This document shows positions 1,843 to 26,700 of a stretch of DNA of 64,000 bases, piece after piece. Numbering within the stretch: the first letter of the stretch is position 1; each line of letters opens with the position of its first letter. The stretch lies in contig SSNU01000051.1 of assembly GCA_012064415.1 (NCBI GenBank), positions 27,102-91,101 of the forward strand, written 5' to 3'. The notes beneath the pieces were generated by a model, which was given only the letters and a program-made list of their open reading frames with translations, made no database searches and was not told the origin of the DNA. The stretch is from Gyrodactylus bullatarudis (lineage: Eukaryota > Platyhelminthes > Monogenea > Gyrodactylidea > Gyrodactylidae). The translations under genes were made by a program, and so were the position numbers.

Positions 1843-3255
1843 CTAAAAAATTAATTGGCTAGTTCTCAAAACCATCAAAACAAAAACAGTCAACATAGAA
1901 TTTTTACATTCCCTTTGTTGTGAGTTTTCAACTTCTGTAGGGGTTTCGTCGTTGAAGAAAAACGTTTCTCCCGGACGAATTTTAGGATTCCTTTTGGGTA
2001 TTTCACCTCCAATGAAGGCATCTGTTATTTTAGACTCAATGAATTCAATGTAATACCCGTATTTACCGCCAAACTCTTCAATACTTATAATTGAATATTT
2101 TCCATCTTTAATCGTAATAAAGTCACTGAGGGGTTTCAAATAAATCATGGGACTCTTCCCACTAGTAAGGACACTTAAATGATCTCGGGCTAGAAATAAT
2201 AATTCTTCGGCAAACCGATTGTCATACGGCTTAATCATAGAGCGTAGGAAAAACAGTCGACAAGCCCTCAGTTCACTCTTCATAAAACAGGCATTGCGAT
2301 TTTGTACGATTGTATAGACATTATTATGTTCTGAAATGCCCTTATCCCTCAACTTTTTCTTACCCAGACTCTTCCTCAACGGAGCAATCTGTTCAAAGAA
2401 ATTCTCTTGTGGATACGTAATATGAGCATAGGCTAAAGTGACTATTTTACTCTTGGCAAAGTAGGCTTCCTCTGTTGTGAATCCGACTCCGATTGAATTT
2501 ATATTTCTTGATATTTTCCTGGACTTTTGACTAACCTTTTGGCTGCAAACTTTGTTTTTTTCAAAATTGAAAAAGTACAAGGAATCAAAAAAATTCTCTT
2601 GCTTATCATATCCCTTGAACTCGTAGACTTCGACGTTTGAAAAATTGGCCTGACTTAGAGTTTTCTTTATGACCGATGGTGTCTTTGTTAGGATTCTGTT
2701 CAATTTTTTACTCATCATGCCCTCTTCAATTCTATTATCCGCTATCTGAGCATTAATGATTATCTGCTTCAACAGATTAAAATCCTCACGAAATTTGACC
2801 AGGATGCACCAAATCATATTTATCGAAGTGTCCTCCTTACAGCCCATATAGTCTACTTTATTCATGTCTATATCTTTAGAACGTTCGAGCTTGTTCAAAT
2901 TCTCATCGTAGATTACTTGAGAATCTACATCTACAAAGTCCGAGAGAATTTGTTCCAATTCCTTCTGCTCAAAGACTTTGATTAGATATACTAATTGGTA
3001 GTTTTCCATTTGCGATAAGATATCTTTCCATTGTCGCTCGTTCCTTGACATGATTTGGCCAAGGATTTTATCGAAATATGGCATATAAAAAATATTTTCC
3101 TTGTATTTATTTGGAAAATGGAGAAGATCTTTTGGAAAGTGATAACAGTAAATTTCCTTCAAGTGTACTATGTTGTCAACATTTTTGTATGCATCGGTTA
3201 AATCAAAATTTTTTATAAGGATGAAAAATATTGCTAGAAGAGAAATTAAATTCAT
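1843..3255 (-). CDS. Secreted protein of unknown function, divergent paralogue A
   Basis: Intronless gene for about 470 residues. The frame stays open a little upstream, but the first ATG is at 3255, which directly gives a hydrophobic leader (MNLISLLAIFFILIKNF), so I chose that start. No known family is recognised. It looks like a diverged relative of the genes at 12307-13737 and 23122-24465. At residues 133-150 it has VIYDENLNKL, then VDYMGC, then a second cysteine 11 residues on (WCILVKF), the same order and spacing as in the other two. A second similar block is ACF...C..FFL near residue 325. The tail (CKNSMLTVFVLMVLR...) is hydrophobic after a small-residue stretch, which could be a GPI-anchor signal; this is inference. 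The gene ends on its own, with NDUFV1 as the nearest neighbour beyond a Merlin element. Confidence 0.7.
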   Translation of the reverse strand: MNLISLLAIFFILIKNFDLTDAYKNVDNIVHLKEIYCYHFPKDLLHFPNKYKENIFYMPYFDKILGQIMSRNERQWKDILSQMENYQLVYLIKVFEQKELEQILSDFVDVDSQVIYDENLNKLERSKDIDMNKVDYMGCKEDTSINMIWCILVKFREDFNLLKQIIINAQIADNRIEEGMMSKKLNRILTKTPSVIKKTLSQANFSNVEVYEFKGYDKQENFFDSLYFFNFEKNKVCSQKVSQKSRKISRNINSIGVGFTTEEAYFAKSKIVTLAYAHITYPQENFFEQIAPLRKSLGKKKLRDKGISEHNNVYTIVQNRNACFMKSELRACRLFFLRSMIKPYDNRFAEELLFLARDHLSVLTSGKSPMIYLKPLSDFITIKDGKYSIISIEEFGGKYGYYIEFIESKITDAFIGGEIPKRNPKIRPGETFFFNDETPTEVENSQQRECKNSMLTVFVLMVLRTSQLIF

Positions 3256-3713
3256 TAAACTCAACTAATGTTGAATGAACTTTTCGTTCATTTCTCCAAG
3301 TGTACGCACGTTCATTCATTGAGTTTTCATTACCTTCTTTACGATCATATCTATCAGTAAAAATTCAACAAGTCGAAAAATATTAAAGAAGGCATCATTT
3401 TAAAATTATATTTTTGACTATTTTGTACCGCTTTTGTTCCTGTTAACACGTTTTAGTTTCATCAAATCCCCCCCTACTTTAACAAAGGTGCAGGGCTACT
3501 GTGTCTAAATCCTGACTGACAGTGCTGCATTTAGAAATTGTTACAACACTACTCATTCTTACAAGAAAATTGTGAACGACAAAATTGCATCCATTTTAGA
3601 CGCATGACTTTAAAGGATAGCTACCATATTAAGAAAGAGTGAAATTGTTTTTCCTCCAGACAGCTCACACGAATTTAGTACTCATACGATTATTTTTAAT
3701 TATGTTAGATAAT

Positions 3714-4515
3714 TTTTGGTAGCAGTTTGTTTCAGGTTCGGCGAAAAATTGGGCCTAGCACTCCTATTGCGCGTAACCAATCAGATTCATTTGAATTCTT
3801 ATAAGTGGGGGATCATGGTGTAAGGTCTATTCGAGCCTATGATTTTTATAAAATATGAAAACTGGCCCTTAAATTGTTTGTTGGAAGATAGAAAGCCAAA
3901 TTTCTTAAAAATTTGTAAGGATAAATATGATAATGAATTGATTAACAGTAACATGCAAATGGCCAGCTTTTTCTGAATAACCTCTTCATTCATCAAAGAT
4001 TTCTGTTGATCATGATTGATGACTAAATAAACTTGCCAAGAACTTCTTGATTTCTACTGGTAACAAATCCCTGTGGAAGGCGCCACCAATCCATTCATTT
4101 CGCAGAATACCTCCCCTAATATATTTTCCTTTCGAAAGTTTTGTTTCATCAATTTCAACCGTATGACCAATGGTCATTGACCATTCCCTACCATTCGAGC
4201 TTGAACATGGAGAAGAGTCGAGATTAATAAATTTATTCTCTACCAACTAGTTCTCGTAAACTTGAGTACTTCTCGTTATTGTTTTTCAGATTTTTCTTTT
4301 CCGATAAAAGCGCCAGTTCTCAAATTTTATCTTGATTTAATCATATCACATGAATAATTTCTACTGAATAGACTGAACCTTAACCGAACCGTAGGCTCGA
4401 ATAGACCTTACAACATGTCATGGTGACCATGATCCCCCACTTTCAAGAATTCAAATGAATCTGATTGATTACGCCCATTTTTTCGCTGAACCTCATACGA
4501 ACGGCTACCTAAAAA
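3714..4515. mobile_element. Merlin-type element with long terminal inverted repeats and transposase fragment
   Basis: About 110-120 bp at the left (from 3714, ttttggtagcagtttgtttc) and right (to about 4515, read in reverse: ttttaggtagccgttcgta) are inverted copies. They share a run ending in gatcatgg and 'gtaaggtctattcgagcct'. Between them lies a transposase fragment (4010-4246, minus). The total is about 800 bp, so this is a short, non-autonomous or deleted element. I could not find a clear target-site duplication. Confidence 0.7.
4010..4246 (-). pseudogene. Merlin (ISXO2-like) transposase, central fragment
   Basis: A 78-residue open stretch contains VEIDETKLSKGKY followed by RG...EWIGGAFHRD. 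This is the start of the catalytic domain of ISXO2-like transposases (IDE-K---KY--GR---W--G), as used by IS1016 and eukaryotic Merlin elements. The N-terminal zinc-binding part and the C-terminal 'HTN-IE--W' part are missing here, so it cannot make a working enzyme. It lies inside the inverted repeats of the 3714-4515 element. Fragments of the other two parts of such a transposase are at 60802-61101 and 61272-61645. Confidence 0.75.
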
Positions 4516-4636
4516 ATAAAAATCTAATGAAAATAACTAAAATTTGTCATATTCTTAGGTAACACGATAACTTGAAGTAGGTGGTAATAATAAATTTATT
4601 TTGATCAATGAATGAGAAAAATCTAAATTTTTCTTG

Positions 4637-6483
4637 TTATACACGTGCTGAGGAAGTTTCTGAATTTCTCTTGTCTATTCTTGCTTCAATTTCTGGTTTA
4701 AAGTTCCTTATCAGACCTTGAACTGGCCAGGCAGCTCCATCACCAAGGGCACAAATAGATTTTCCCTCAATTTGCTTACTAACTTCGTAGAGCATGTCAA
4801 TTTCATCCTTTTTGGCGTCTCCTTGAACAAACCTCTTCATAATTTTATTCATCCAGTTACAGCCCTCACGGCATGGAGTACATTGGCCACAAGACTCATG
4901 CTTGTAGAATTCAATCAGACGAGAGATGCAACGAATCACATCTGCTGATTTGTTCATCACGATAACGGCAGCTGTTCCAAGACTTGATTTGTGCTCAATC
5001 AAACCATCAAAGTCCATCAATGCGACTTCACAAGCTCTAAAAAGGTAAAAATTACACACTTGGACGCCTTCTATGATTTTTAATTGGTTTATTATTCGAG
5101 CTTAATAGTTCTAAAATTACTCTTTGCGCATAAGAGGTGTTGAAGAACCTCCAGGGATAACAGCAAGAAGGTTATCCCAGCCACCAATTACACCTCCGGC
5201 ATGTCTTTCGATTAGCTCTTTCAATGGAATAGACATTTCCTCTTCAATAGTGCATGGGTTGTTGACTTGACCAGAAATATTGAATAGTTTTGTTCCACGA
5301 TTACGTTCACGACCAAAGCCAGCAAACCAGTCGCCACCTCTTCTGCAAATAGTAGGAGCAACAGCGACTGTCTCGACATTGGTCACTGTGGTAGGACAAC
5401 CAAAGACGCCGATATCGGCCGGAAAGGGAGGCTTAAGTCTTGGTTTCCCTTGTTTTCCTTCCAAAGACTCAATAAGTGCTGTTTCCTCGCCGCAAATGTA
5501 GGCACCAGCACCTCTGTGAACATAAATATCAAAATCGTAGCCAGATCCACATGCATTCTTGCCGAGGAATCCTTTCTCATAAGCCTCTTTGATTGCAACC
5601 TAAATATTTTTTCATGATAGAAAAAAAGAATTTACAGAAGAAATTTGAATCTAATCATATGAGCCAAAAAATATTAAATTAACAAAGAGATCTATGTATA
5701 ACTTCGTAAACTCGAAAAAGAATGTCAAGATATACATTGTATATTAACGCTAGAATGAAAAATTCTTAATGGGAGTTTTAATACAAATGGGGGTTTTTAG
5801 ACCCCCAAATTTCATTCTAGTGTTAAAGAAGCCATTACATCCGAAAAAAGTATGTTGTGATAAACCAATTTATGAATAAGGATGATAAGTATTTTAAGCA
5901 GATAGATATAAAAAATAAAGAATACAAACCTGTAGATTAGATGATTCATTATAGAATTCTCCACGAATATAAATATATGCAGCTCTAGCGCCCATTGCCC
6001 TTCCAGCAATAAGGCATCCTTCAACTAGGGTATGAGGGTCATGCCGCATAATCTCACGATCTTTACAAGTTCCTGGTTCTCCTTCGTCTGCATTGATGAC
6101 AAGATACTTAGGTCGGCCATCATCAAAGGGTTTCTTCATGAAACTCCACTTGAGACCAGAAGGAAATCCGGCACCACCTCGACCACGAAGACCAGATTTT
6201 TTCACTTCCTCAATGATCCAATCATCTCCTTTGAGAAGAATTTCTTTAGTTTTATACCAATGACCCTGAGAAGTAATTTAGAGATGAATTACTTACTCTT
6301 TCCATGGCTCCTTTGATCTTCCAATCATGACGACCATAAAGATTAGTGAATATGCGGTCTTCATCAGCTAAATTACCATATGAGCATTTTTGATTAAGCT
6401 GAGAAGCACATCTTAATAGCTTGCTAGTTGATCCTTGAAAGCAGACATTATTAATACATATTTTAGTTACTTTGAGAAATCAT
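4637..6483 (-). CDS. NDUFV1: NADH dehydrogenase flavoprotein 1 (complex I 51 kDa subunit)
   Basis: Five exons (6471-6483, 6297-6433, 5930-6265, 5121-5599, 4637-5036) join in frame to 454 residues, the normal length. The protein is the mitochondrial matrix subunit that takes electrons from NADH through FMN and a 4Fe-4S cluster. Seen: [10 protein letters not shown] (NADH/FMN site), [23 protein letters not shown], and the cluster ligands [12 protein letters not shown] plus the later ICALGDGAA. The first exon has only 13 coding bases and adds a basic, serine-rich leader ([16 protein letters not shown]) that fits a mitochondrial import signal. Introns 1 and 2 are 37 and 31 bp, intron 3 is 330 bp and intron 4 is 84 bp. 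VMP1 lies upstream on the same strand. Identity is certain; the exon 1 choice rests on phase and leader only. Confidence 0.97.
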
Positions 6484-6926
6484 ATTTCAAAAACACTCAA
6501 AAACTTTCGAAAATAAAAACAATCCCGCTTTAAGTTTGTGAAAACTGTTTTAGTGAATTTGAATTTATAAACTTCATGTACTATTAATTAGTAACTATTC
6601 AGACAATTAGACTCTAGAGTCTAGAAACTTCAATCCGGAATGTTTTTTAAAAACCACTAGATGAATTGGTGTAGAATATAAAAAAAGTTGTCAAACATAA
6701 ATTGGTCAAATCTAGGATTCCTAATCTCTTCACCTTATATACTTTTACTTGAATGAAAAGTTTAAAAATCCGATTATTGATTTATTTTGATTTGTAACAG
6801 AGTTTTATGATAAAATTTTTAAGTAAAAAATTCATTCTTCATAAATAAACTAGATTTTTAAACTTGAAGAATAGCTTCTTTTTTTATCTGAGGCCAAATT
6901 AAACCATAAAGTGATTGGCAATTCAG
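6484..6926. other. Intergenic, NDUFV1 upstream / VMP1 downstream
   Basis: About 440 bases between two genes read in the same direction. It must hold the NDUFV1 promoter and the end of the VMP1 transcript. I see no specific motif beyond AT-rich sequence. Confidence 0.5.
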
Positions 6927-8936
6927 TCATTTTTCTTTTTCATTAATTACAATTTCTCCTTCTGCTTTGTGACGCCATGTGCACAGTCTCTTGTGATATT
7001 CTTGTGCAAATGAATTGATTATTGAAACCATGAAGCTTCCCATTAAGGCAATCACAAAGAAACTTATCAAAGTTGCAATTATATTCGATCCCTAGAAAAA
7101 ATAATATTCAAATAAAATAACTAGAGATTTTTCAATAAAATACAATAAAGTAAGGAAAACAAAGAAATATCTAATCAATAATAATCATTCGAAAGAATTA
7201 TATCAAGTAAATTTTTGTAGAATCGAATCATTTTATTTCGAGATATTTCATCTGATAAGCTTAACATTTTCACAAACAAATGACGCCATGTATTAATGTG
7301 AATGTAATATTTGAGAGTAATTTTTCTAGATTTAAATTTTTAGATTGAAAATTATGAATATAGCAACCCTAGAGTATATTATATATCAAATAGATGCGAT
7401 GTTATTAAGAAAATATAAATAATTTAATTAATAATAATTTCATGTTTATCGATTATTTATCAATGTATAAAACTCACGGATGATTCTGTTTGTCTTTTGT
7501 GTAGTTTTTCCTTTTGACTCACGATTAAATTGACAATTTGCGGCTTCAGCTTCTCACCAACATAGGGGATTTTCCTAGGAAAAATGACATGAATAATGAA
7601 TTCTAATCTGATTTGTGGAAGAAAAACTCACGATATATTTTCAATAATCAAATCGAGGTATTTTTGAGACATAAGGAAAACCACGAAAATTTGTTGAATA
7701 TGCACTTTAACAAGAGCTTTGCCAATGAAAGTGGCTAAGAAAAAGTGCCAAAAGGGAATCAGGAAATGTCCGCAAGTCATACCGGCCAAGTCAAATAGTG
7801 GATTAGGAATCTAGGAAGGAGAATTAAATTAGAGAATTATTCTGATTTGGCAAGTAGACATTATATTTCGTGCAAGATTCATATTTGAAAACGCGTTTAA
7901 CTTGACATAGTGTATTTTATTAGACTTTATTCAAGTACTAATAGGGCTATAGTTTAAACAAAAAAAGGAGAATAACAAATCAATATTAACATGATATATC
8001 TTTTCTCTTAATATTAAATTATGCAAAAATACCTTTTGTAAAAAATATTTAATAAATACTCACTGAGGCACAGAGTAAAATTCCAACAAAACCAGCTCTA
8101 TTTATCAAGGAATGTAGAGAGTATTCGAGGCGTACTTTAAGTGGAATGGACGAGTCAAAAATAGATATGTTCTTATTGTTTGTTTCAGCAATAAGATCTT
8201 GAAATTCTTTTAATTCGTCATCATCAACTGAAGTTCCAGAGAGTCTAGCACTTCTTGCCATAAAGTATGGAGGCAACTCGCCAATGGCAGTTCCAAGACC
8301 CTGAGAAATGATTTATTACAAGAAGGATAATTTACCCATAATATGGCTTCAAGTTGAGTTTTCATAATAATTTGAATGAGACTTGGTTGAGAACCTTTGA
8401 CAGATTCACTTGGACAAATAATTTCATCAGGATACGGAGGTTCAGGGAAATCAACAGTTTGACATTCAAAAGCTCCAAGTGTGACCTCTGCAATAAACGG
8501 ACCCAGATACAAGACAAAAGTATGAAGACCTGTTCCAAAGCCGCATGAGGACAAGAAACCCAAAAGTATCCACCATAAATACCAAAACGCTCTCTTATGA
8601 ATAAAGAAAGCAGTCTGTAGAAAGATAACATTAATGACAATTTAAACCTACTTTTTGGAATGGATTTGGTATTTTGTACAGTAGATATTGGAGCGAGATT
8701 AGGAAAATCACTGTGAAGCATGTCTTTTTCCAGCAAAGTAAATTTAGGATGAAGTATTTGAGTTTTGTCAGGACTTCAAGAAAAAAATAATTCAGTGTTT
8801 TTAGTGGAGATTTCCATAACACGAGATTTTCTCTTTCGTTCATCTCTATATCTTTTAAAGACTGAGGTCTGGATCTGTCATTATCTGATTTTTTTGTATT
8901 TCGTTTAGAAATAACATTGCTATCTTCACATGACAT
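6927..8936 (-). CDS. VMP1: Vacuole membrane protein 1 (ER lipid scramblase, autophagy)
   Basis: Six exons (8652-8936, 8336-8614, 8064-8300, 7632-7810, 7478-7574, 6927-7091) join in frame to 413 residues, close to the usual length of about 400. VMP1 is a multi-pass ER protein with a DedA/VTT-type domain. It works with TMEM41B in lipid scrambling and early autophagosome formation. Seen: [25 protein letters not shown], the signature [22 protein letters not shown] split over positions 8300 and onward, then [20 protein letters not shown]. and a last hydrophobic exon ending in a lysine/glutamate-rich tail. The tail lacks a clear KKXX signal. The N-terminal about 60 residues are charged and variable. 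The first two introns are 37 and 35 bp; later ones are 253, 57 and 386 bp. Identity is secure. Confidence 0.95.
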
Positions 8937-9432
8937 TTATAAAATATTGTTTGTAAATTATTTGAATTATTGATTCAACATAAAACAACCAAAACTAATT
9001 CGATGGTATTTTAAAAAAATATTGCTTCATTAAACTTTAAAAAAATTATTTTTTCCCTATTTGAGAGTATCAAGGGCAAAACTAGCTTGTCATATCATGC
9101 ATTATGTGGTGTTATAACTATCTCAAAAGATTTATCAAGGTTGATCTAGCGAAAATAAATTGTTTTCATTAGCAAAGTTAATATTTTTGATTGAAATGTA
9201 CATATAATATATAAATATATATAGACAAGGAAGGAGGAAGAGGGATTTGTCGATAAGATTACTGAAAATAATCAAAAATTAAAGTTGATATATTAGCGTA
9301 TAATACATATAGAAATCCATTTGTAGTAAAATGTCGATGATCTAAAATTGACATTCTGGCTGAGATTTTTAAAAATTTATGAAAAAATTTGCTGCTGTGT
9401 ATTTTCCAGACGAGCTCATTCTCTACTTGAAA
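8937..9432. other. Intergenic, VMP1 upstream / eIF4A downstream
   Basis: About 500 bases between same-strand genes, very AT-rich. It contains the VMP1 5' region and the eIF4A 3' end. No element or RNA gene is recognised. Confidence 0.5.
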
Positions 9433-10742: not shown

Positions 10743-10849
10743 ATCAACTTGCCCTTAATTTATCCAAAATTTAAAGCTGTTAATAACAAAATTCTACGAA
10801 GAAAATTGGTAATAAGAATTTGTTTAAAAAGTCCAAGTTTACAAAAAAT
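10743..10849. promoter_or_regulatory. Shared promoter region of eIF4A and FAM136A
   Basis: Only 107 bp separate the two divergent start codons (77 bp if the upstream in-frame ATG at 10820 is used). Both 5' leaders and core promoters must fit here or overlap the neighbour. No TATA box is obvious. Assignment is by position only. Confidence 0.55.
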
Positions 10850-11281
10850 ATGAATGAACATGATGTAGATCGCCTTCAGCATAAATATGAAGGAGCTGTT
10901 AATGATATGATTGACAAACTCGATTCGAGTTATATTCGCAAAATACAGAAGAACTTCTTTACATGCGCCTCGAAATGTTGTGACATGCCAATTAAAGCTA
11001 ATCAAGTCCAGGATTGTATCAAAGATTGTGAAAAATCTCTTAGTCAAGCTCATAATATTCTCAATAGTGAATTAAATCTTCTTCAATCTCGTCTCCACAA
11101 TTGCTCATCAGAATGCATAAATAAAGCAAAAGATTATTATAATCTTGAAGATCCTGAATCTCGGAAAAAGGCTCAAATGGATTCTATTAAGTGCTCAGAA
11201 AAATGCATCGATGATAATATATCTCATGGTATTCCAGCAATGTACAATAGAATGTCAAAAACTTTTGAAAAGTTTATCTAG
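10850..11281 (+). CDS. FAM136A: FAM136A-like mitochondrial CX3C protein
   Basis: Single exon, 143 residues from the ATG at 10850. An in-frame ATG at 10820 would add ten residues (MFKKSKFTKN); I prefer 10850 because FAM136A proteins start close to the first conserved helix. It shows the family's repeated cysteine pairs: CASKCC, CIKDC, CSSEC and CSEKC, with helical, charged spacers and a final PAMYNRMSK helix. FAM136A is a small, poorly studied, conserved protein of mitochondria, and the CX3C pairs suggest oxidised helical hairpins of the intermembrane-space type. It shares a promoter region with eIF4A. Confidence 0.9.
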   Translation: MNEHDVDRLQHKYEGAVNDMIDKLDSSYIRKIQKNFFTCASKCCDMPIKANQVQDCIKDCEKSLSQAHNILNSELNLLQSRLHNCSSECINKAKDYYNLEDPESRKKAQMDSIKCSEKCIDDNISHGIPAMYNRMSKTFEKFI

Positions 11282-11465
11282 GATGCCCATCAATTGTAGT
11301 TATTTTGTTATCGCAAAAAGAATGAATTCAGTTTTGATATTATAAAAAATATTCCAGAATCACCAAGACTGCTTATTAAATGGCATTCAATGATTATTAG
11401 TTATCAATACATTTGAGTGTAATTTTTAATATTTTGAGTTTGGAAGGGTTCAATAGGCAATTGAG

Positions 11466-12200
11466 AGTTGATATGAAGATGAGAATTTACTATTTTTACT
11501 CGATATTTTTCTCCGGATTCACTGAAAAAAATAATTTTTGAATTTTAAAATGAAATGAGCTAATAAAATGTGGATATTCGAAAAAATTCTAAAAAAATTC
11601 AATCTGACCAAAATAAGGACATTTTTTGAATTTCGAAAATGCACCAAATTTCCACTTGAAATTTTGAGTTCAAAATTTTTATCGATTTCAATGATTCGAA
11701 GTAGTTAAATGCAGAAATTTGGGATCAACATTAGACAAAGAATTCCAATTCACCTGCAGACTCTTGAGGTTCCCTGAAATTCGTCATTACTGTGGGAAAT
11801 CTAACCATTCGAATTTTTCGATTATTATGAAGAAAAATTATCCAAAATCTGGAAGTTAAACTTTTTCTCTGAAACAATAAGATCTTCGCAATCTCTATGG
11901 CCAAATTCGAATTCTTCGTTCAATGTTGATCCCAAATATCATCACTTAACTGCTTTGAATCATCGAAATTGATAAAAAAATTTAGCTCAAAAGTTGAAAA
12001 AGTGGAAATTTAGTACATTTTTGAAATTTGAAAAACGTCCTTATTTTGGTCAGACTGAATATTTTTCGGAATTTTTTCGAATAAACACATCTTATTAGCT
12101 CATTTCATTTTAGAATTCAAAAAATTATTTTTTTCAGTGAATCCGGAGAAAAATATCGAGTTCGTTGTAAAAATAGTAAATTCTCATCTTCACGTCAACT
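11466..12200. mobile_element. Foldback/MITE element with long inverted arms (copy 1)
   Basis: The left arm begins agttgatatgaagatgagaa and the right arm, read in reverse, agttgacgtgaagatgagaa. The arms match over roughly 330 bp each with small gaps, including 'tttctccggattcactgaaa' and 'ctgaccaaaataaggac'. No coding capacity is seen. The same terminal motif (TATGAAGATG-GAATTTA-gATTTTTACA) recurs at 15894, 18409, 19020-19220 and, more weakly, elsewhere in the window. Confidence 0.75.
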
Positions 12201-12306: not shown

Positions 12307-13737
12307 ATGCGTATGAGTTTTCTCGTCATCAAGATTTTTGTGATGGTTATTTTCGGATCTAGGACCATTGATTTGTTTGCTTGTTCAACAAAATATCAAA
12401 AATTTCTAACTGAACCAACATTCGAAGATCTTTATTGTCTTAGAAGAGATTACTTGGACAAGTATGCAAAAAGTATTTTCACACGGACCAAAGCAGCCTA
12501 TGAAATTTTCTCTTTCAAAGTAATCTATCATATTGAAGGTGCCATTCCTCAAGTTAACTTGTCCATTTTAATTTTCAACTTCATGGCACAGGCTACAACA
12601 CTTCACAGACACCAATATCCGACCAAAGATGACTATTTCTCATACCTCAAACTCTATGATAAAAATATGAATAAAATTGACCTGGAAAATCTTAAATTTG
12701 TGGCTGGAATTGATACATTCGGATGTCACTTTAGTGTGAAAGATTCAGTATTCTGTGTCTTTGCCAAACACGAATTGGTTAATTTTCGCTTCAACATGTA
12801 CCATGGCCTCAGGCTAAAAGGTTTTCAATTTGAGGAAAGTCTAATTATGGAAAAGCTGATTTCTGCACATGGATTTTCTTTCTCCTCTTACTATAGGATG
12901 ATGAATTCCATGAGTGATCTTAAATTTTTATATCAAGCACATTCGAGAAATTTTGATTTATTATTCGGGTCCACAATTTATCTAGACAGTTATGATTTTA
13001 CTGACCTGAATGGAAAACGTTATACAGCTTGTCTAAATTACAAAAACGGTCGAATTGGGGAATGCCCTAGAAAGTTGGATAAAATTAAAAAGTACATTGT
13101 TGGATGTGATCATACGATTGAGGATGGATTTAAACGATTCCAGTGCATTTTCTTTACCTATAAAAAACAAAAGATGCTTGTAATCACAGCCATCAATAGT
13201 CTGAGGAAGAAATCTTTCCACAATGACATCCTAATGGATCATGAATATATGCACAAGGACATCAGTGTTTGTTATATATCTTTAGATAAGCAATATATTT
13301 GCACTGTCACATTCTTTTGTAAGGCTAAAGAATCAAGTTTCTTGAAGACCCAAGAAATGGCCATAGTAAAAATTCACCAATTCTTTTCAGATGACTACCT
13401 CGGTCATTCAATAATTGGTTGGAATAAGGTGATTAAAAACATTTTCTTCCCCAAAGTGTACTACAACTTAAAAGTTGATAAACAAAAAGATGACTTTATT
13501 TTATTTATTTCAATAAAACACAAACTCGGTCCATCCTCTAGACAGGCGAGTAAATTTGAAAAGAGGAAAGTGCAAAATGAGGTAACACTGAAATCTGAAT
13601 TAGAGACAAAGGTAGCCTATCCCGAGGAAGATTTACAGCCTGTTAGTGTTAAAGTCTTGGAGTATTCAGCGTATTCAAGGAGTAAAATCTTGAATTTCTC
13701 ACTGTTGACTGTGATTTTAGAGCTTTTTTTTCAATGA
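12307..13737 (+). CDS. Secreted protein of unknown function, paralogue B
   Basis: Intronless, 476 residues from the ATG at 12307. The frame is open slightly upstream but without an ATG, and 12307 starts a good signal peptide (MRMSFLVIKIFVMVIFGS, cleavage probably near FA-CSTKY). It is clearly related to the gene at 23122-24465. Shared blocks are KFLT...L.CL.R.YL..YAK, YD.......L.FVAGIDTFGC (residues 125-140), CVFAKH about ten residues on, and DISVCY-SLD--Y-C followed by a QFF....L...I..W..V block. The tail ILNFSLLTVILELFF is hydrophobic and may be a GPI signal or membrane anchor (inference). No known domain is recognised, and I give no function. Neighbours are a foldback element upstream and the 3' end of TRAPPC8 downstream. 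Confidence 0.8.
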   Translation: MRMSFLVIKIFVMVIFGSRTIDLFACSTKYQKFLTEPTFEDLYCLRRDYLDKYAKSIFTRTKAAYEIFSFKVIYHIEGAIPQVNLSILIFNFMAQATTLHRHQYPTKDDYFSYLKLYDKNMNKIDLENLKFVAGIDTFGCHFSVKDSVFCVFAKHELVNFRFNMYHGLRLKGFQFEESLIMEKLISAHGFSFSSYYRMMNSMSDLKFLYQAHSRNFDLLFGSTIYLDSYDFTDLNGKRYTACLNYKNGRIGECPRKLDKIKKYIVGCDHTIEDGFKRFQCIFFTYKKQKMLVITAINSLRKKSFHNDILMDHEYMHKDISVCYISLDKQYICTVTFFCKAKESSFLKTQEMAIVKIHQFFSDDYLGHSIIGWNKVIKNIFFPKVYYNLKVDKQKDDFILFISIKHKLGPSSRQASKFEKRKVQNEVTLKSELETKVAYPEEDLQPVSVKVLEYSAYSRSKILNFSLLTVILELFFQ

Positions 13738-14702: not shown

Positions 14703-17700
14703 TTAAACTTTGATAATCTTTGGCATGGTTATATCTTGTTTAATGAAAGAATATGTACCAGATCTTTCAAGATCTTCTATTCGTGCAACTTTGAGACTGA
14801 TATTGTCCACAGTGTAATAACCCTGATTACTGACCAATCCTGTTAGAGTAACTTCCTTGGTTTCATTTCTTTCCAGTTCAATGTTGAAGTCGGTCTTTTC
14901 ATACCAGAGTATTCTACGTGATACTCTAGCCTTGGAAGAGTCCTTGCTAGAATTATTACTACAAGGGAGGAGTAAGGAAAAAGTGTGAAAATAAACTTTT
15001 TCCACTTACACGGGAATGTTTTGAGCACGTAGTCTGGCCAAAATCTTTTGATTTGATGAATTCAACAGTCTACCGGTTAGAACAAGTTTGTAGAATCTAA
15101 AATTACAAAGGGAAGATAGGTTAAAAAGGGATTCTTCCGAGAAATTGAGCTTATTTTAGATGTGTGAATCATTGAATTTAATTCATCCCTGGAAGAGGCT
15201 TGTTTGAAAGTGGAATTTCAAGCTCTAGATCTTAACAGCACAGTTAAAGTTGATCGAAACTGATGGAACCATAAGGTTAGTATCTAGAACTATTAATCTA
15301 AACTATTTTTATCTCAACAGGTGATATTAAGACTATCAACAATGGGCTATACAAAATTTTATTTTCATACAAAAAATTTCCAAGCCTTAATCAATTATTC
15401 ATGGATTCACCGGGAAATGAGATTTAGGCTGGGAAAAATTGAAAAATTTGACTTTTTAGATTGAATTTGAATTTGCTCTAAACGATTGACTCTGATATAG
15501 AATAACGAAAAAGTTTTCTCTCGTATTTAAAATACCAAGATTTTTAAATTTATGATGATTTCACAATTTGGCAGAGGGTGACACGAATCCTTGTTCAAAA
15601 ACTTCGAAGAAACAATAAAAAATACAAACTCATTGTTTGAAGAAGATTTGGCTGGCTTTACAACGCAATCACTCCACGAGACAAGAACCTGTTTACTTTC
15701 GACGAGAATCTTTGTAGCCATTGGATAATGAACCTTGGTTTTTGTCGGCCTAATAGGCTTATAGTTCTTCTTTGAGCTCATAAAAGAGACAGGTGATTCT
15801 ATTGTATTGGCACGACACTGTTCAATGCTTTGAGCACGATTACTGAGGATATTAGCCTTGAGAAATAAAAAATTTGTTGAAATTTCTAAAGCTAGTTAAT
15901 ATGAAGATGAGAATTTATGATTTTTACAAAAGTCACATTATTTTTATCAAGAAATCGAATATGATCAAGATTTTTTGAAATCTACATCACGAGGCCCACT
16001 TTTACACTACGGAGGAAAAAATTTTGAAAAAAAATTTTTAAATGAAACTTAGGGCATATTTTAAATCTCGAACTTGAAAATTTTTGCTGATTTCAAAGCG
16101 AAAGAGTGATCTAACGTTGAAAAAGAAATCAAAAATGCAGAAAATCTAATTTGTGTGAAAATTGATTCAAAAAAAAATTATTTTGCCTACTTGAAAGTAG
16201 ATGTAATTTTGATGATCCTAGATACCTGAAGAAACACGAATTTCTCTAAAGTTTTAAGGTGATAATTAGTTTTCTTGTCTCATTGTGATCTTAATAATCA
16301 ACTCTTGATCACTCTTTCACTTTTAAATCAGCAGAAATTTTCAACTCAAAGTTCGAAAAGTGGGAATTTGGTGTTAATTCGAGATTTAAAATATGCCATA
16401 ATTTTCATGAAAAATTATTTTTTTCAAAACTTTTTTTCCTCCATAGTGGATGTGGATTTCTTGATCAAATTCGGTTTCTTGATGAAAAAATTGATATATA
16501 CATCATAACTCATGATAAACAGTTTCCAAAGGATTTTGACTGAAATTCATGAATACACCTCAAAGCCACATTTAGCACTCATTGTTTTACATCAAATTCG
16601 TGCAAAATATACATTCTTTTGAATTAACTAAAACGAAATTTCTTCAAGAAAAAATATGTCAAAATTCTGGATTCTGTGGAAAGAAAGGTAACTCACAGTT
16701 TTATTATCAGAAAGGGGAACTCTGGTGGGAGTATTCAAATTTCTAATTTTCACTGTTGTCTGGCCATAATTTTGATAGTCTTTCTCATAATCAAAAGGTC
16801 TTTCTGCACTTGACGGCTCAAAGATTTTGAACTAAATGAAATCATGTTGAAATATAATACATAAAAAATATAATCAGGTACTTGTGGTGTGTACTAACTT
16901 TCCATAAAAATACAAGTGGGATTGTTAGGTCAGGATTCTTTTTGCGAGAGAGAATTTTCTTCTTGGTCACGAAACCGGTCTAGAAAAAATCAGAATTAAA
17001 ATATTGTACTCTCAGAGTTTATGGTTTGACATGGAAACTTACGGTACTAGAGAATTCTGGCAGATATTCACTTTTATGGAGCTTGAGAGCAGACCAATTA
17101 GTACCCGAGGATTTGTAAAATTTTTCATCAAACACTCGATCAAAATCCGACTTGGCAATGTTGACACGATCATATCCAGACTGACTGAAATCTCGAGTTC
17201 TTCTCTTGAGTCGATAGAAATGAGATTCAATCTCACGTGGGAATATGCCAGGGTTATCTGATGAAATTAGTATATAGATAATCATCATAAAAACATAGTA
17301 TGGTGAGTTGATAGAGTTGACGAAATACAACACTTTTACTCGAGCTCAAATTAGTCGGGCAGTGGATTGTAGCTAATTTTCTCCTTTCGAACTTGATAAA
17401 TCACGTATCGATATTGAATTTCAGTCTTGCTACTTTTTCAATTTTTAAGCTAAAAATTTGTTGATATTTGGAATTTAACCCTTTCGGTACCAGAGGTCAT
17501 ATATGACCTCTATGTTCAAACTGACTTTTTTCAATGATTTTGAAACATTTTTTCATGATTATTTTTTGATAGTATATCACAAACTATCTTAGTTTGCTAT
17601 CATGCTATATTTTTGCTAGCCAGGAATAAGAATGCCATAGATATTTGAACTTTTACCAAAGGAAGTAGAATTCCTTAATTCATGATTCTTTTTGATTGAA

Positions 17701-20700
17701 ATTATTAAACATATCAATGTTAAGAGATAATAAGATTAATTTCCATGGAAGCTAAATAGTTAATCCAAAACAAGTTATATCTTTTATGCATGAAATCAAT
17801 GAGCAGTTCCATCAATAGTCTCGTGAAAATGGGGCAATTTTCAACCCCATTTTTACCTTTTTGATATTAATTAACTTTCAAATAAATCCCTTCATTGGCA
17901 AAGTTTCACTCTAAATAACTCACCAGTAGATGGGAATTTCAATATAAATCAGACCCTGATGAAATTATGTGTAAGTAAAGATTTTCATAAAATTTTGTCC
18001 TAGTAAATGTTTTTTATCATCACAGGTAGGTAATTCTGTGAGAGAATTAAGCCTGAAACTTAGTTCGTTCAGCTATGATATCGAAAGGGTTAAAGCGGTT
18101 ATTTATTGACAAAAAGGATCAGAATTAGACAAAAATATCTAAAAATTTCTCCATCGTCAAGAAAAAGTTAACGGCCATTCATCTGAAATATAAAGCAAAA
18201 TTTTTTTGTCTGATTTTGATTTCAATCATCAGTGAAAAACTGCTTCAAAAGTTGAAAAGGTGTCATTTTGACTCTATTCCAAAACCCATAGCATGACCAA
18301 ATTTTCTTCGTATTAAATTCATTTTTGTGACTATAGTAAGAATGGTAAATTTTCAATTTTCTATATATCAACTACCTTTACATGTATTTACAACTAAAGC
18401 TACGAGTTAATATGAAGATGGGAATTTAAGATTTTTACAAAATTCTTAATTTTTCAGAAAGAAATCGAATATGATCAAGATTTTTTGGAATTTAGATCAT
18501 GAGGCCCTCTTTCACGATACGTAGAAAAAAAATCAATTTTTAAAGAAAATAAGGCAAATTTTCAATCTTAAAGTAGCGCCAAATTTCCATTTTTTTGAAC
18601 TTCAAATTTTTGTTGATTTCAATGTGAGAGAGTGATCAAAAGTTGATTTTTAGGATCACAATTAGTCAAAGAAATTAAATATGCTTAATCTGGTTTTGAG
18701 AATCACCCCATAACCGAAATTGATCATTTTCCCTACTTGAAAGTCGATGAAATTTGATATTTCAAGATCCCTGAAAGATGACAAATTTATCCAATTTTTA
18801 TGTTGATGAGCGTTTTTATTGTCTTATTGTGATCCTAAAAATCAACTTTTGATCACTCTCTCACATTGAAATCAACAAAAGTTCAAAAAAATGGAAATTT
18901 GGCGCTACTTTAAGATTGAAAATTTGCCTTATTTTCTTTAAAAATTGATTTTTTTTCTACGTATCGTGAAAGAGGGCCTCATGATCTAAATTCCAAAAAA
19001 TCTTGATCATATTCGATTTCTTTCTGAAAAATTAAGAATTTTGTAAAAATCTTAAATTCCCATCTTCATATTAACTCGTAGCTTTAGTTGTAAATACATG
19101 TAAAGGTAGTTGATATATAGAAAATTGAAAATTTACCATTCTTACTATAGTCACAAAAATGAATTTCTGAAAAAATTAAGAATTTTGTAAAAATCTTAAA
19201 TTCCCATCTTCATATTAACTAGGTGTAGGTTTATATTCTGAAATAAAAATATCACTCACTTTTATCAATGATCTGATTTGAATCTCGGATAAACTCCCAT
19301 TCAGTATTCATGCAGACAATGTCTGTAACCAGAAACCGTACAGAAACTTTAGTGTCTGATGGACAGACATTCTGAATGGATATCGAAAGATCCAGACTGC
19401 TCATTTCATCTTCATTAGTTTCATTGACTTTTGAAAGATTGCTCCATGTTAGCATACACTCGAAGCGGAGAGAGGGCCGAATTTCGAATTTGGTTTCCAA
19501 AAGACAATTTCGATATCTAAAGATTCAAAGAAAGTTTATTCTTTGTTTTTTAAACCCTATTGATCATGGATAAAAAGTAAAATAGCTTTTATCGATTAAT
19601 AGAGCAGTAATCATACAGTTCAAATATACAACCCATAAAGAAAGGCGATGCCAGGTTTGTTTGAGAGAATGTCCAGAAAAAGTTTCCCCATCAAATTTTG
19701 AAATCCTTTACAAACAACTAGGGAAAAATCTGACAGCAGAGGCTCTTTTCATTGAAAAAGAAAAGCCAAACTTGAGCATAGAGAAAGTAGATATCAAACC
19801 TCTAGTCCTACCTAGAGGAACTTTAAAAACAATATACATGAATGAAGAGACCAGAGAGAAATAAGCTAATTCCCAACCTTCAACCAGATCCAGACCAAGA
19901 AAAAGGAATATATGGCGGAAGGAAACCAAGATCAGAAAAAGATAACCAGATATTTCTCTCAAAATTAATACTAATAGAACTCAGATAATTAAACTCAAAC
20001 CATTATTTTTCAAAATCCTGTTTAGCATGGTCTATTCCATTGAAAGACCGTATACAAATGTACAAAGAACCAGTATACACACGCACATGGTAACTCTCCC
20101 ACAACCAAATGTACTCGCATAATACCAACACCAAGAAAACTACAGAGAAGTACCAAAAGAAGCACAAACGCACTCACCTCTAAGGAGGTGAACAAAAAGA
20201 AGGGCTAATCAGATCAATTATCATCATTTCTTGTAATTTTTGTATATAAATCTGGCATGTAAAAGCTGAAGAATATACCACGAAATAAAGCGCTATTCTT
20301 TTAACAAACCTGGCATCGCCTTTCTTTATGAATTCTTCTATTGCTCAGATAAAATCAGAGGTTAATCAACACCTCTCAAACAAAAATATACAATCGTCTG
20401 AACTAAAAATAGTTGCGTGAAAATTCACGATCACTTAAAGGGGTAACTAGTCTTTCTTAATAAACATGGAGCTAAACCTAGTTAGCATAAATATGAGAAT
20501 TTACTATTGTTACAAAAAAATCGAAAAACCAAAAGTAAATAAATAAAATTGAATTTGGCCATTTTATGAATCTTGAAAGTGCTCAAGTTTTTCAACCTTT
20601 GAGCTAAATTCAATTCTTTTATTTCAAAAACTTATGGCCTCTTTTCAGAGTGGAATTTAAAAAATAAAATTTTTTCTGGCTTTCGGAGTTTTTTGTAAAT

Positions 20701-23700
20701 TTTTTGTCAATTCTAGCTAGGTTTAGTTTTTTACAAGGTAAAGGAAATTTTGAAAAAAAAATTGGCTCACTTCGAAATTTTCCTTGGGACTGTGTAATCC
20801 TCGGATGCTTGGTACTGCAAAGCGAATAGGTAATTTTTCGAATGAAGAGAACTCGTATGTGAGCTTGGTGGCAGAAGGAGAGTGTCTACTGAAACATTAC
20901 CAAAAGAGCTATTTCGATTGTGGTACTTTTGGTATAGGCTAGCAACAGGTGCACGCAAGGTAATGTCAAAAGATTCTTCTTGACCAGGCTTGAGGTTGTC
21001 AATTGGAAGTTTCGAGAAGAAAACATCCTTGAGAAAGGGTAAAAAAGGTTGACTTAAAAGATTAAAAAGAGGCATGGGTAAATCTACATTAGAGTTTGAT
21101 GATTGATTGAATTTAAGAAAACCAGGCCAGTTTGACGTGTAGGTCAGACAATTTGCAGTCTTGGAGCTTTTATTCTTGATTCGAAGTCTACCTATGATGA
21201 TTTGGCCCTGGAGCATTGACCTCTGGCTGATAATAAACTCAACATGAAGCAGTGGCATCTCATCAAGCAATTCCCACTCCAAAACTCTGAAAGAAAAAGA
21301 ATAAAACTATGAAATGGTTATTGGATATGTATAGGGCAACAAAAAATATGCAATTAAAAAAAAATTAAATGCCATTTTCGAAAAAAATATATGTCGAAAT
21401 ATGTAGTTCATTTTTTTAGGTACTATTACTTCATAATAGTTTAAATGGATAAAATGAAAAATATTTAATTGGGAAAGTTCGTAAATGCTTGTTGCTTGAC
21501 ACCTATTTTAATGATTGACTCTGAGAACCGATTCAATAACTTTGAATTGTACCAATGAGAGAGAAGTATGAAAATTAAAATTTTATCTTATTCTAATTGT
21601 TTCTGTTCAAACTTTACTACATAAGACCTTGACAACAAATGGAGGTTTGTATCACATTCATCTCAATCAGCCTACTTTGTTTGAAAAGGGATGAAAAAAT
21701 TGTTGCTTATAATATGCATAAAATAGTGTAATGCAGACTAATAATGTGATAAGCTTAAAAATATGTAAAATATGCGGTCTAAAAATTAGAATTTTTAAAA
21801 ACAGTTTACATAACTACATTCGAATTGGATTTCTAAAAGGGGTATATGACAGTTTTGAAAATATGCAAAACATATTTTTTGTCGCTCTAGACATGAGTAA
21901 TAAGTACAAAATTATGATTTTGGAGTCTATAGAAATTAAACTAAACGAGGTTGTACCATTAACAATAATATAGCGAACAACATTATAGTCAATAAAAACT
22001 CTTGATCATATTAAAATTAAAATATGCTCAAGTTAAAATTACTGTTAATTATTATAACGATAATATTGCCGAACTTCATCAAGAATATTTTCGTTTGGTT
22101 CTAAACTCATGAGTTTATTTTGGGTTGTTTCAAAAGTATTAAGCAAATTTTTCATAAATCAAGTATGAAATAACAGCAGAAATTCATCTCAAATAATTAT
22201 ACATTTTTAAATACAAAATTTATCAAAGAATTCGGGTTTCTTAATGACAATTTCTAAAATTCTATCGTTCAAAAGTTAAAATGGAGTTGATATCGGAGCA
22301 ATAATTTATTCAGGCCGAAACTTATCAGAGGCTTATCCATCGGCTCACAAAGAATGATTTCCTATCACATATCGTAATGACAGATAAAAAATGAATATAA
22401 CGGAAGGATCAGAGCCGTAAAAAATACTCAGAATTTGCTAGGGATACATTCTTACAGGACAATTCCAGGCCTCATGCCTAAAGATTAGTGAAAGATTTTT
22501 TCAAGGAGAGCAGCGTCGACGATCTTAACCATTCTCCCTACTGTACAGATCTTGATCCAACAGATTATCACTTAGGAACCCTCTGCTCATAACTAGCTGC
22601 TTTTATCTTTTCATAAAGTGATCAATTTTTTTTCCCACTGTCTCGACTTCGTTTTCTTTTACCTTTTCTCACAATTTTTCTTCTCAATAGTTAAAGGTTG
22701 GGTCATAATCGGATTACAGTTATCAACTATCGTAGACTTCTCGTTAACTTCATTTGTATCCAACTCTGTAACTGTTGTTGGGGCGCTGCTAGAAACTAAA
22801 TTTAATTCCATTTTGTTTTTGAGATAGGATGAGAGGTCCGATTGTGGGTTTGAGCATTCTACCTATTTTTGTAATTTACTTTCTCTTTAAATACTTCATT
22901 GAATTCATCAAATTCGTATTTTTTACACATTGCAAGAAAAATTTAAATTTGTACTGAAATTAAAAACTAAATACTGATCAAGTTTTAATAAAATATTTCC
23001 TTATTATATTTGTGAAAGCTATCAAATTATAAAAATTTTAAAGATTCTTATGAATTACATTTTTAAAATTTTCTCAGACCATCCACAAGAAAATGATGAT
23101 TCGTTCGATTTCCATATCAAATTAGGATTCCTCAGTGGGGATGTAGAGAAAAGATTTTTTCTCCTCGGCAATGTTCTTCATATTTTTATTTTTCTCTCGA
23201 GTCAACGTTCTCCTTCGAATTCCAATATTTTTGAAATTAGAGGGTGAAGAGGAGTACTCAGAAATAACCATGGCATGTTTAATTATCAATTTGATGAAAT
23301 GATACCCCGCTATGGGCTGATCGAATGCTTCTATCTGATAAAATACTTTTGAAATTTTCAAACTTTGCGCTACCCTCCGCCAAGCAAGTATGGTATTTTT
23401 CAAGAAATCAGTTTTGAAGAATTGATCAACCCTGGTCATGAACGATTCTTCAAGTTTTAGAGAATTCGATTTGTTAACACTGCCAAAATAGGCTATTACA
23501 CAAGTGTAGTTTTGATCAAGGGATTTATAACAAACACTAATATCACTAGTGGAAACCTTGTCTCCCAGAATCATAGGAATTTTACCATGCCTCTTCCTGG
23601 TCTTGTCCAGGAAATGAACTATGAGATATTCCTTGAAGTAATTAGAGGCGATAAGACAACGAATTTTCCTTCTCTTGTACAAATTACACCCTATAGTGAA

Positions 23701-26700
23701 GGGACTCGATCGGCCCTGGCATTTTGTTGGATTGTAGCAGGAGTTGGCAAAATATCTCAAAATTTCCTCTCTATCTTCATTCTTCTCATAGATTAAGGCC
23801 GCATCAAAAATTAGGTCAACTTGTCGAACGTCCAAGGTCAAAATAAATTCGAGGTTGTAAAGGGGCAAAGGCTTATGGTACAAGGATTCATCAACAGACT
23901 CAATAATCTCTTCCAGGATGCAGCTATCTCTAAAGAATATTTTAAGTTCCCTGAAATAGTTGTACACAATGGATTTGTAGTCAACCTTTTTGTGTTTGGT
24001 AAAGACACAGAAAAAGTCCCTTTTCGCATTGTAAAGATAACACCCAAAAGCATCAACCCCAGCAATAAAGGGTAGGCTATCATGATTAATTTCCCTGAGT
24101 TTACGATCATAAACAGTATATATTGGTTTGACAATTTCTGGATATTTTGGATGATAATTGCCAGTCGCTATGTAACTCAAAAAGTACAAGAGTGTTGTAT
24201 TGAATGTCAGTTGTGAGTAATTGCCACGGAGAAAGTATACTGGCTCAAAGGAGAATAATTCACTGATGTTATTTGTCTTGTGTACATCCTTGGCGTAATG
24301 ATTGAGATAACTTCTCACTAGACAGTCCAAATTCACAGTCATGACTCCAGTGAGAAATTTCTCATAGTTTTCATAACAATGATAAGGAAGGATTCTTGCT
24401 TTACATAGAATAGTTGTGAGTAAAATGACGCTAGTGATAGTTGTTACAATCATCCTTTGAATCATTTATTCTAATCAACAATTTTTCATTTATTAGGTTT
24501 TATTCATACTAATTCATTGAAATATCTTTAAATCTGAAAGATTCTTAAAATTTACACATTATATTACGATAAAAAGTTGTAAAGTTGAAAAAAGGAAATT
24601 ATAGATAAGCAACTAAAACAGAGCTTGGGAAAGGTCTTACTTTTACTCTAAAATGTTTGCTCGCATTACAATTCCAAAAAGATGGAAAAAATCTGCAAAA
24701 ATTTCTCTACAACTCATTGCCTCAAACTTCTGAGCTATTTCATTCAGATCTTGAATAGTAAAAAATACAAAAGCCGTTTTTGAATGTGTGAATTATAAAC
24801 TTGGGTGTACATATATCGGACGTAGATAAAAATTTACTTGATTTACTAATTCAGAGAAAGGTTATGAGAAGAAAACATAACACACAAACATAATAAAATG
24901 TGACTTGCCTGAAATTTTTCAAAGGAACAAGTCTTTGTTTTGTAATTAAATCGAGTTGATCTACATATTCATCATTGGTCAGTTCATATTCTGCTTTTGG
25001 GCCACATTTGAATCCAACCATATTCAAGGGTATCCGACCTCTGATTGATTTATGTCCCTCAATTTCAGATTCAGCGTTGAAAGTGATGCCAGTAATTTTG
25101 AGGTGGCCTTTCGTTAAGCCTCTAACAGCCAAGTTGATCTCAAAAAATAGAGATATTCTATAACTATAATTTGACCAACTTGAGATTCAACATGTCTGAA
25201 AGTCACTCTGATTCAAACTAATTATCCTTTTAGGAATAATTACCAGTTTTTCTCGAAATATTTCCAATTTACGTATTTCAGTGTATTTATTTCAGCAAAA
25301 AAATAAGATTATAATTATAATCTGCCTTTTAAATTAACTATTCCATCTAAGCAAACTGGTCAAAATTAGAGTCAATAATAGCATTCTCAATCAATTGTAC
25401 TTTTCTTAGTTCAAACGTTTAGAAACATACTACTAACGTGCTACTATGTATGAATTTTAAAAGCAACCTTCGAATTAAATTTTTAATAAACTTTAGATAA
25501 CAGAATAATAATATGGTAAAAACAACTTTATTAAACCAGTCAAGTTGATACAACTGATTGAAATCAATCTCGGTGTCAACAAATATTCGAATATATTCTA
25601 ATGAAATACTAGTGAAGATTATAAAATTTCGGTGAAATTCTCTTTCGAGTGTAGCTTTGTAAAAGTCTACATTCTCTAGGGAAAAATTTAGGGTTGAAAG
25701 TTAATCTTTGATCAATTTTAGGAATCGCTATAATAAAATCTTCAATGGAAAAAGGAAAATTTTGTAACGTACTTATATCCAACACTCATTTTGAAGTGAA
25801 ATTCTCTGTATTAAACTACATGTGTTTTAAATTTTCTTGTGTTATACCAAATTAGAGAAATTCACTTCTTGAATTTGCGCCAATGACACTATTTTCAGAC
25901 ATATCGGTAATTTTTTTCAATCAAAGAATATGGCGAATTAAAACTAAAACTATTTGAAACAGTGAAAAAAATTCCAATAATTTCGATGTATATTTAAGGA
26001 TTTGTTTTCAATCGAATATTGTTCGGAGAAAAAAGAATTTAACCTCTTCCTGATCAAATCCTACCTGGGAAATTTTCATTATACAAAATAATTTCCCAAA
26101 AATAATGATGTTTATTCCAGAGCGTGGATAAAATTACCAGTGTGATTGCTTTGGCATTCAACTCGACCTGTTCCAATGGTGTGACCTGATACATTTCCTC
26201 ATCGAGTCCATCTGAAGAATCCACATGGCACTCCAACTTGACATTTCTCAGAGTCAAATTGAATAGAAAGTCATTCCTAAGGACCAGTTTCACCCAGAGA
26301 TCCTCTGTAATAATATCAAGTTTAAGTCACATCATAACGTATTTACATTGCATGAGTTAAGAGAGGGAAATCAATATTTTTTGCAAATTTTTGATTATTC
26401 GTCCACTATAAGAAGATGAAGAACGTCTTAGTTTACTCATGATCTTTGCCGAATATTAAATCTTGAAAAGAGAATACGTCATAATTAAGAATTGGAATTC
26501 TGAACACAGATTGAGTTTCTTAAGATTAATAAAGAATTTCTCTTTATCTATGCTGTCATTCCAAGGATTTTTTTAGATAAAACGGACGGTGTAGATGTTC
26601 TAATGACGAGTCCTAAGAAGGACGAAACGCGTCTATATCTGCAACTGTGAGTTGAATATTATTTGTATGGAATTGACACTTGCTTCTTCGAATTCTAACA

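What the first reader, a model, noticed from the sequence alone, without database searches (positions are those of the whole stretch)
1843..24465. Three intronless genes form an unassigned secreted protein family
Genes at 1843-3255 (-), 12307-13737 (+) and 23122-24465 (-) each encode 447-476 residues with a signal peptide, no introns, and a shared core: YD--L/M, G-[VI]D--GC or VDYMGC at about residues 133-142, then a second cysteine 10-11 residues on followed by a hydrophobic and K-H/K-F stretch. B and C also share DISVCY-SLD--Y-C. All neighbouring genes are intron-rich, so the absence of introns is striking. I know no family with this pattern. Two have hydrophobic C-termini that could be GPI signals. 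This may be a lineage-specific secreted or surface family, possibly spread by retroposition.
Basis: partly seen in the sequence, partly recalled or inferred. Interest (0 to 1): 0.8.

Follow-up and report, generated by a model that had tools for sequence, protein, structure and literature searches.

The report
Seven-member intronless secreted-protein orphan family
In a small animal genome, probably a roundworm's, three uninterrupted genes belong to a family of at least seven apparently secreted proteins for which we found no known relative; five of the seven sit close together among housekeeping genes, and what they do is unknown.

Summary
A (1843-3255 -), B (12307-13737 +) and C (23122-24465 -) are complete single-exon ORFs. 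B and C are plainly homologous; A is too distant to link directly, but a gene found here 7.2 kb beyond it, F, matches A at E 3e-8. Genome searches and reading of flanking DNA gave seven members: B, C, D, E and A, F, G. Profile comparison joins the two subfamilies over 259 collinear columns (score reached by 0 of 200 column and 1 of 200 block shuffles). Five of seven lie within 37 kb, on alternating strands; C lies inside TRAPPC8 and G inside WDR1. No member reached a Pfam cut-off; protein-database, viral and prokaryote searches were blank, but nematode coverage was not controlled and A/F/G were not scanned in the last two. Conserved cysteines pair up 8-18 residues apart and two pairs are lost together. 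No fold could be assigned (pLDDT 57.6). Best reading: a lineage-restricted extracellular family from an intronless founder, enlarged mainly by local DNA duplication, probably secreted or GPI-anchored binding proteins. Retroposition as the way of spreading is not supported.

The parts
1843..3255 (-). Gene A, 470 aa, single exon, A/F/G subfamily
2806..2841 (-). A, hairpin 1: C139-C150 (VDYMGC...C)
   Evidence: positions computed from the CDS
2260..2289 (-). A, hairpin 3: C323-C332 (hairpin 2 has neither cysteine in A: V257, Y276)
12307..13737 (+). Gene B, 476 aa, single exon, B/C/D/E subfamily; hydrophobic C-terminus
12724..12756 (+). B, hairpin 1: C140-C150 (GIDTFGC...C.FAKH)
13105..13146 (+). 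B, hairpin 2: C267-C280
13270..13302 (+). B, hairpin 3: C322-C332 (DISVCY...C)
23122..24465 (-). Gene C, 447 aa, single exon, B/C/D/E subfamily; no hydrophobic C-terminus; lies inside the span of TRAPPC8, same strand
24007..24042 (-). C, hairpin 1: C142-C153
23656..23688 (-). C, hairpin 2: C260-C270
23500..23532 (-). C, hairpin 3: C312-C322
14703..15005 (-). TRAPPC8 C-terminal Ig-like domain exon (3' of gene C; context)
   Evidence: PF24542 E 6.7e-6, 26.3 bits against a cut-off of 27
20767..21306 (-). Inferred TRAPPC8 exon just 3' of gene C; splice frame compatible with 24851-25186 (context)
   Evidence: sequence printed; frame and GC-AG sites read by eye; no Pfam or PDB hit
24851..25186 (-). 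Inferred TRAPPC8 exon just 5' of gene C (context)
   Evidence: no Pfam or PDB hit
30703..31293 (-). TRAPPC8 Trs85 domain exon (5' of gene C; context)
   Evidence: PF12739 E 4.4e-13, 49.6 bits against a cut-off of 26.7
10787..11281 (+). FAM136A/DUF842 ORF, apparently intronless neighbour (context, not a member)
   Evidence: PF05811 E 2.1e-31
4637..6277 (-). NDUFV1-like exons (context)
   Evidence: PF10589 at 4637-5101; the rest read by eye

Best explanation
The three genes are members of a small lineage-restricted family (7 found) of extracellular proteins. Shown: all 7 are complete single-exon ORFs; two subfamilies, with good evidence of common origin; five clustered in 37 kb, two of them inside WDR1 and TRAPPC8; protein sequence held back by selection although it changes fast. 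Inferred: the protein enters the secretory pathway by an N-terminal signal peptide, folds into strand-strand-helix units pinned by nearest-neighbour disulfides, and in several members is held at the cell surface by a GPI anchor added at the hydrophobic C-terminus, with C as a secreted form; it acts by binding (surface recognition, host-facing or reproductive), not by an enzyme mechanism that I can recognise. The family descends from one intronless founder and grew mainly by local DNA duplication into introns and intergenic gaps of housekeeping genes.
For: Homology: B, C, D, E all six pairs at E <= 3e-43; A-F E 3e-8 or 2e-7; F-G E 1e-48; the two subfamily profiles align over 259 collinear columns, score 25.4, reached by 0/200 column shuffles and 1/200 block shuffles, with 99th percentiles of aligned columns of 90 and 147. 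Consensus searches recovered B, C, D, E and F, G, A and nothing else (these are the sequences that the consensus was made from). Selection: pN 0.39-0.54 against pS 0.74-0.83 in 9 of 9 within-subfamily pairs. Disulfides (columns of alignment A4): 382/392 Cys in 7 of 7; 307/329 both Cys in 6 and both absent in A; 40/58 both Cys in B, C, E and both Ser in D. Clustering: C119:14841-51566 holds G, F, A, B, C. Nesting: G lies between WDR1/AIP1 exons that match residues 78-329 and 408-520 of chain 1nr0_A; C lies between Trs85 and TPPC8 C-terminal Ig exons on the same strand. Tails: a 15-residue window of mean hydropathy above 1.6 at the C-terminus in A, B, E, F.
Against: Function is not shown by anything here: no expression data, no fold, no domain. 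No signal or GPI predictor was available; the hydropathy threshold flags the N-terminus in A, B, C only and the C-terminus in 4 of 7, and most tails carry a charged residue (A, B, D, F by eye). Single-sequence HMM links between subfamilies are weak: A 3.6 bits with 6 of 284 scored shuffles as good, G 13 of 269, D 20 of 292; F, B, C, E no better than shuffles. hhalign's own probability for the subfamily match is 1-2% (with the same score). Column 40 keeps its Cys in A, F, G, where column 58 has none, so the 40/58 pairing cannot hold there; G lacks the first Cys of hairpin 1. pS is saturated, so no dN/dS is given. Members on C16 and C459 are not explained by local duplication, and flank comparison showed no shared duplicated flanks.
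Confidence: 0.6

Rival explanations
1. Retrogene family: each copy is a separate reverse-transcribed insertion of a spliced mRNA.
For: No coding introns in 7 of 7; C and G sit within unrelated genes; D and E lie on other contigs; an ORF with a reverse-transcriptase domain and a GIY-YIG match (22.4 bits against a cut-off of 22.6) lies 0.7 kb past F, and a similar-looking remnant lies near D (by eye; its piece 1433-1777 gave no such Pfam match).
Against: Five of 7 within 37 kb; no intron-bearing parent found (which are not exhaustive for distant relatives); longest 3' A-runs of 6-8 nt equal background (median 6, 95th percentile 8). Age could have erased tails and target-site duplications.
Confidence: 0.15
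2. Captured gene of a virus or other mobile element (for example an envelope or surface protein), intronless from the start and since domesticated.
For: Intronless, signal-like start, hydrophobic tail in some, cysteine pairs, no relative found; mobile elements nearby (others by eye).
Against: No relative in viral contigs with the B/C/D/E alignment (A/F/G not scanned there); BFVD rows are weak (TMq 0.09-0.17 in the 50 rows shown). CDS GC of 0.31-0.36 is like most of the window.
Confidence: 0.08
3. A member of a known animal family too diverged to detect by sequence (for example an M16-like two-domain fold, or a PLD/DNase II-like enzyme turned inactive).
For: Foldseek lists insulinase-like rows: a viral insulinase (E 4.4e-4, prob 0.69, first row), a designed M16 fold (E 0.012, prob 0.85) and insulin-degrading enzyme (E 0.34); a length of about 450 aa would suit two domains.
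Confidence: 0.17

Closest known systems
Taxonomically restricted (orphan) secreted protein families of animals (general class, recalled)
   Same: Secreted-looking, cysteine-paired, fast-changing, small copy number, no domain match
   Different: No coding introns in any of the 7 members; alternating strands; two members inside housekeeping genes
Nested intronless genes and retrogenes of animals (general class, recalled; PMC3532220 on Caenorhabditis retrocopies seen only as search listing and abstract start)
   Same: Single-exon genes inside host genes
   Different: No parent gene found, no poly-A remnant above background, clustered, all copies intronless
M16 (insulinase-type) fold
   Same: Appears among the Foldseek rows
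   Different: No HxxEH in 7 of 7; low TM-scores; resemblance not established

Membership tests
The proposed family itself | All three window genes of common origin | tested here: met
   B-C E 1e-46; A-F E 3e-8; subfamily profiles 0/200 and 1/200 shuffles. A to B or C alone: weak or not significant
The proposed family itself | No introns in the coding region | tested here: met
   Complete ORFs in 7 of 7 with an in-frame stop 0-21 codons before the ATG; UTR introns cannot be judged without RNA
GPI-anchored proteins | C-terminal signal: small residue, spacer, uninterrupted hydrophobic tail | tested here: inconclusive
   Hydropathy mean above 1.6 in A, B, E, F; not in C, D, G; no predictor available
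Retrogenes | Poly-A remnant and an intron-bearing parent gene | tested here: inconclusive
   A-runs at background and no parent found, but age could erase the first and the searches could miss the second
M16 metallopeptidases | HxxEH zinc-binding motif (recalled) | tested here: not met
   0 of 7
M16 metallopeptidases | M16 fold | tested here: inconclusive
   Low-confidence model, low TM-scores
Phospholipase D superfamily | HxKx4D motif (recalled) | tested here: not met
   0 of 7
DNase II | Pfam profile match | tested here: inconclusive
   No such row for any of 7, but remote members could be missed
Viral surface proteins | Sequence or fold relative in viruses | tested here: inconclusive
   None by sequence for B/C/D/E; A/F/G not scanned; fold rows weak

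The most novel reading that the evidence does not exclude
The family has a new extracellular fold built of repeated disulfide-closed strand-strand-helix hairpins, founded by a single gene that never had introns (born de novo or acquired horizontally) early in this worm's lineage, and kept as a set of fast-changing surface recognition proteins parked inside and between housekeeping genes.
Probability: 0.2. Interest if true: 0.6.

Novelty: new member of a known kind. Interest (0 to 1): 0.36.

Why it matters
It gives a small, clean test case for how lineage-restricted genes arise in animals: seven intronless paralogues, two subfamilies, known positions and a predicted disulfide map. If related species show the founder's origin, one could tell de novo birth, horizontal gain and retroposition apart. 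If the proteins are surface or secreted effectors they could also serve as species-specific markers. Without expression data or a fold the present importance is moderate.

Tried and rejected

Internal repeats: hairpin 1 against hairpin 2 of A1 gave P 0.0032 (0.012 against the whole C half), hairpin 1 against hairpin 3 0.36; the m/c2 score is an artefact of overlapping slices. Degenerate DNA patterns: the F/G motif found F, G and one 3-mismatch place on C137, against 1 in the reversed control; FC[VI]F[AT]KH found the four known genes at 0 mismatches and 22 other places at 1 mismatch, against 6 in the control; those 22 were not examined. Flank comparison of the 7 genes gave 7 short matches of 23-55 nt, taken as dispersed short repeats. 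Weak profile rows in fetched DNA, up to E 0.0077 for a 95-aa ORF at window 58264-58548, were not followed. Species identification by papers failed. A bacterial promoter scan of window 1-200 was run to no purpose.

Full report
What was checked. Each is closed at the 5' end by an in-frame stop 0-21 codons before the ATG. Uninterrupted ORFs of this size are not unique here: besides A, B and C the window's 7 ORFs of 250 aa or more include a TPR (CDC27-like) ORF, a zinc-finger ORF, an eIF4A-like helicase ORF and a Ty3/gypsy-type polymerase ORF (domains of the first three, finer names by eye). The FAM136A ORF shows that not every neighbour has introns.

Are they one family? B and C: 28% identity over 413 columns, E 1e-46. 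A to B 24 bits, E 0.008; A to C E 0.33. So the window alone does not tie A to the others. Searching the whole genome (77,324,412 bases, 471 contigs) gave D (C459:142830-144260 -) and E (C16:7640-9079 -) as relatives of B and C, and nothing for A. Reading the DNA upstream of the window showed F (C119:20437-21765 +), whose search gave G (C119:14841-16124 -). A-F: 41.6 bits, E 3e-8 as a single comparison, 2e-7 in the all-against-all run. A/F/G and B/C/D/E as profiles: hhalign's probability is only 1-2% and its E 0.028-0.055, but the alignment is collinear over 259 columns, and the score was reached by 0 of 200 column-shuffled and 1 of 200 block-shuffled versions of the A/F/G profile, none of those with 200 or more columns; the reversed profile scored 18.3 over 18 columns. 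Single sequences against profiles were weaker: A 6 of 284 scored shuffles as good, G 13 of 269, D 20 of 292, the other four no better than shuffles. I take common origin of the two subfamilies as likely (about 0.85) and that of A with F and G as firm.

How many are there? Consensus searches found the same four and three members and no more at E <= 10. The first look of that tool needs shared words, so seven is a lower bound.

Anatomy. By eye all seven begin with a short hydrophobic stretch; by a 15-residue hydropathy mean above 1.6 this is flagged in A, B and C only. The C-terminus passes the same threshold in A, B, E and F, not in D, G or C. Nine columns of alignment A4 hold Cys in 3 or more of 7; besides the N-terminal column 40, six do so in 6 or 7 of 7 (169, 185, 307, 329, 382, 392). 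They lie in neighbouring pairs 8-18 residues apart. In A both of 307/329 are replaced, and in D both of 40/58 are Ser, as expected if each pair forms a disulfide. In A, F and G column 58 has no Cys; there the N-terminal Cys (37/25/20) and one central Cys (237/220/213) remain without a near partner and may pair with each other, which is inference. G lacks the first Cys of hairpin 1.

Structure. With four sequences pLDDT was 44.7, with seven 57.6, pTM 0.41. The second model suggests repeated strand-strand-helix units (118-152, 235-271, 286-330, then two strands 353-376, numbered in the mature part of C). Searches of the PDB and of viral models gave no convincing match; 49 of the 50 VIA-align rows cover residues 278-389 only, so the rest of the protein is barely tested. 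No Pfam family reached its cut-off for any of the 7.

Where they sit. G, F, A, B, C begin at C119 14.8, 20.4, 28.9, 39.4 and 50.2 kb, on strands -, +, -, +, -. G lies between two WDR1/AIP1 exons that are on the other strand (matches to residues 78-329 and 408-520 of chain 1nr0_A). C lies on the same strand as TRAPPC8, between its Trs85 exon (window 30703-31293) and its C-terminal Ig exon (14703-15005); the two nearest ORFs can be joined in frame across the intron that would hold C (sequence, sites by eye), though by themselves they hit nothing. A and B lie between genes as far as I can tell. D and E have other neighbours: a Kunitz/TSP1 ORF near D, DnaJ and GPI-transamidase (Gpi16/PIG-T) ORFs near E.

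Selection. In the 9 within-subfamily pairs pN is 0.39-0.54 and pS 0.74-0.83: synonymous sites are saturated, protein change is held back. The genes are old and kept, but change fast.

How it arose. All members are intronless, and so most likely was the founder. Clustering on alternating strands fits local DNA duplication with inversion better than repeated retroposition; A-runs 3' of the genes are at background. Against a simple duplication picture, no shared flanks were found, as may be expected at this age. Retroposition of the first copy, de novo birth or horizontal gain remain open.

Organism. The mitochondrial contig C13 (14,926 bases) has a COX1 with 12 in-frame TGA, and nine protein genes that I named by eye (nad4, nad4L, cob, cox3, nad5, nad6, cox2, cox1, nad3) all lie on one strand. 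I judge it an early-branching nematode from the look of COX1 and cytochrome b, which is recall, not a test. Passages of PMC9115964 and PMC5288807 say that mitochondrial gene order is highly variable in Mermithidae and Longidoridae, and gave no name; nor did passages of PMC13233069.

Literature. Word searches showed no paper on such a family in their listings; they are too coarse to show that none exists.

Verdict.

Noticed in passing
window 30830-31129 and 32097-32396: A 300-nt stretch overlapping the TRAPPC8 Trs85 exon occurs twice at 100% identity, 1267 nt apart start to start: recent exon duplication or assembly artefact.
   Followed up: partly
L023:5296-6615 + (C119:22495-23814), and L020:947-1777 +: ORF with a reverse-transcriptase domain and a GIY-YIG match just under its cut-off (Penelope-like, name recalled) 0.7 kb past gene F; a similar-looking remnant with a stop lies near gene D (by eye; no such Pfam match for its piece 1433-1777).
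   Followed up: partly
window 55025-57989 -: Ty3/gypsy-type retroelement (by eye) with a long polymerase/RNase H ORF and GC 0.445 at 56001-58000, against 0.26-0.39 in the other 2-kb steps.
   Followed up: no
L021:7640-9079 and L021:3134-4320: Gene E lies about 3 kb from ORFs of the GPI-transamidase subunit Gpi16/PIG-T; probably coincidence, but it suggests that this organism has the GPI machinery.
   Followed up: no
L026:412-2610 and L023:494-967: Intronless gene G lies inside WDR1/AIP1, on the opposite strand.
   Followed up: yes
L021:6021-6251: Mariner-like transposase fragment near gene E (by eye).
   Followed up: no
L035:8754-9998 +: Another long uninterrupted ORF with a signal-like start and an LRR-like beginning on C459 (by eye), so secreted single-ORF genes may not be rare in this genome.
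   Followed up: no
B/C/D/E alignment, hairpins 1 and 2: Hairpin 1 and hairpin 2 resemble each other weakly (hhalign P 0.0032, single comparison), hinting at an internal duplication.
   Followed up: partly
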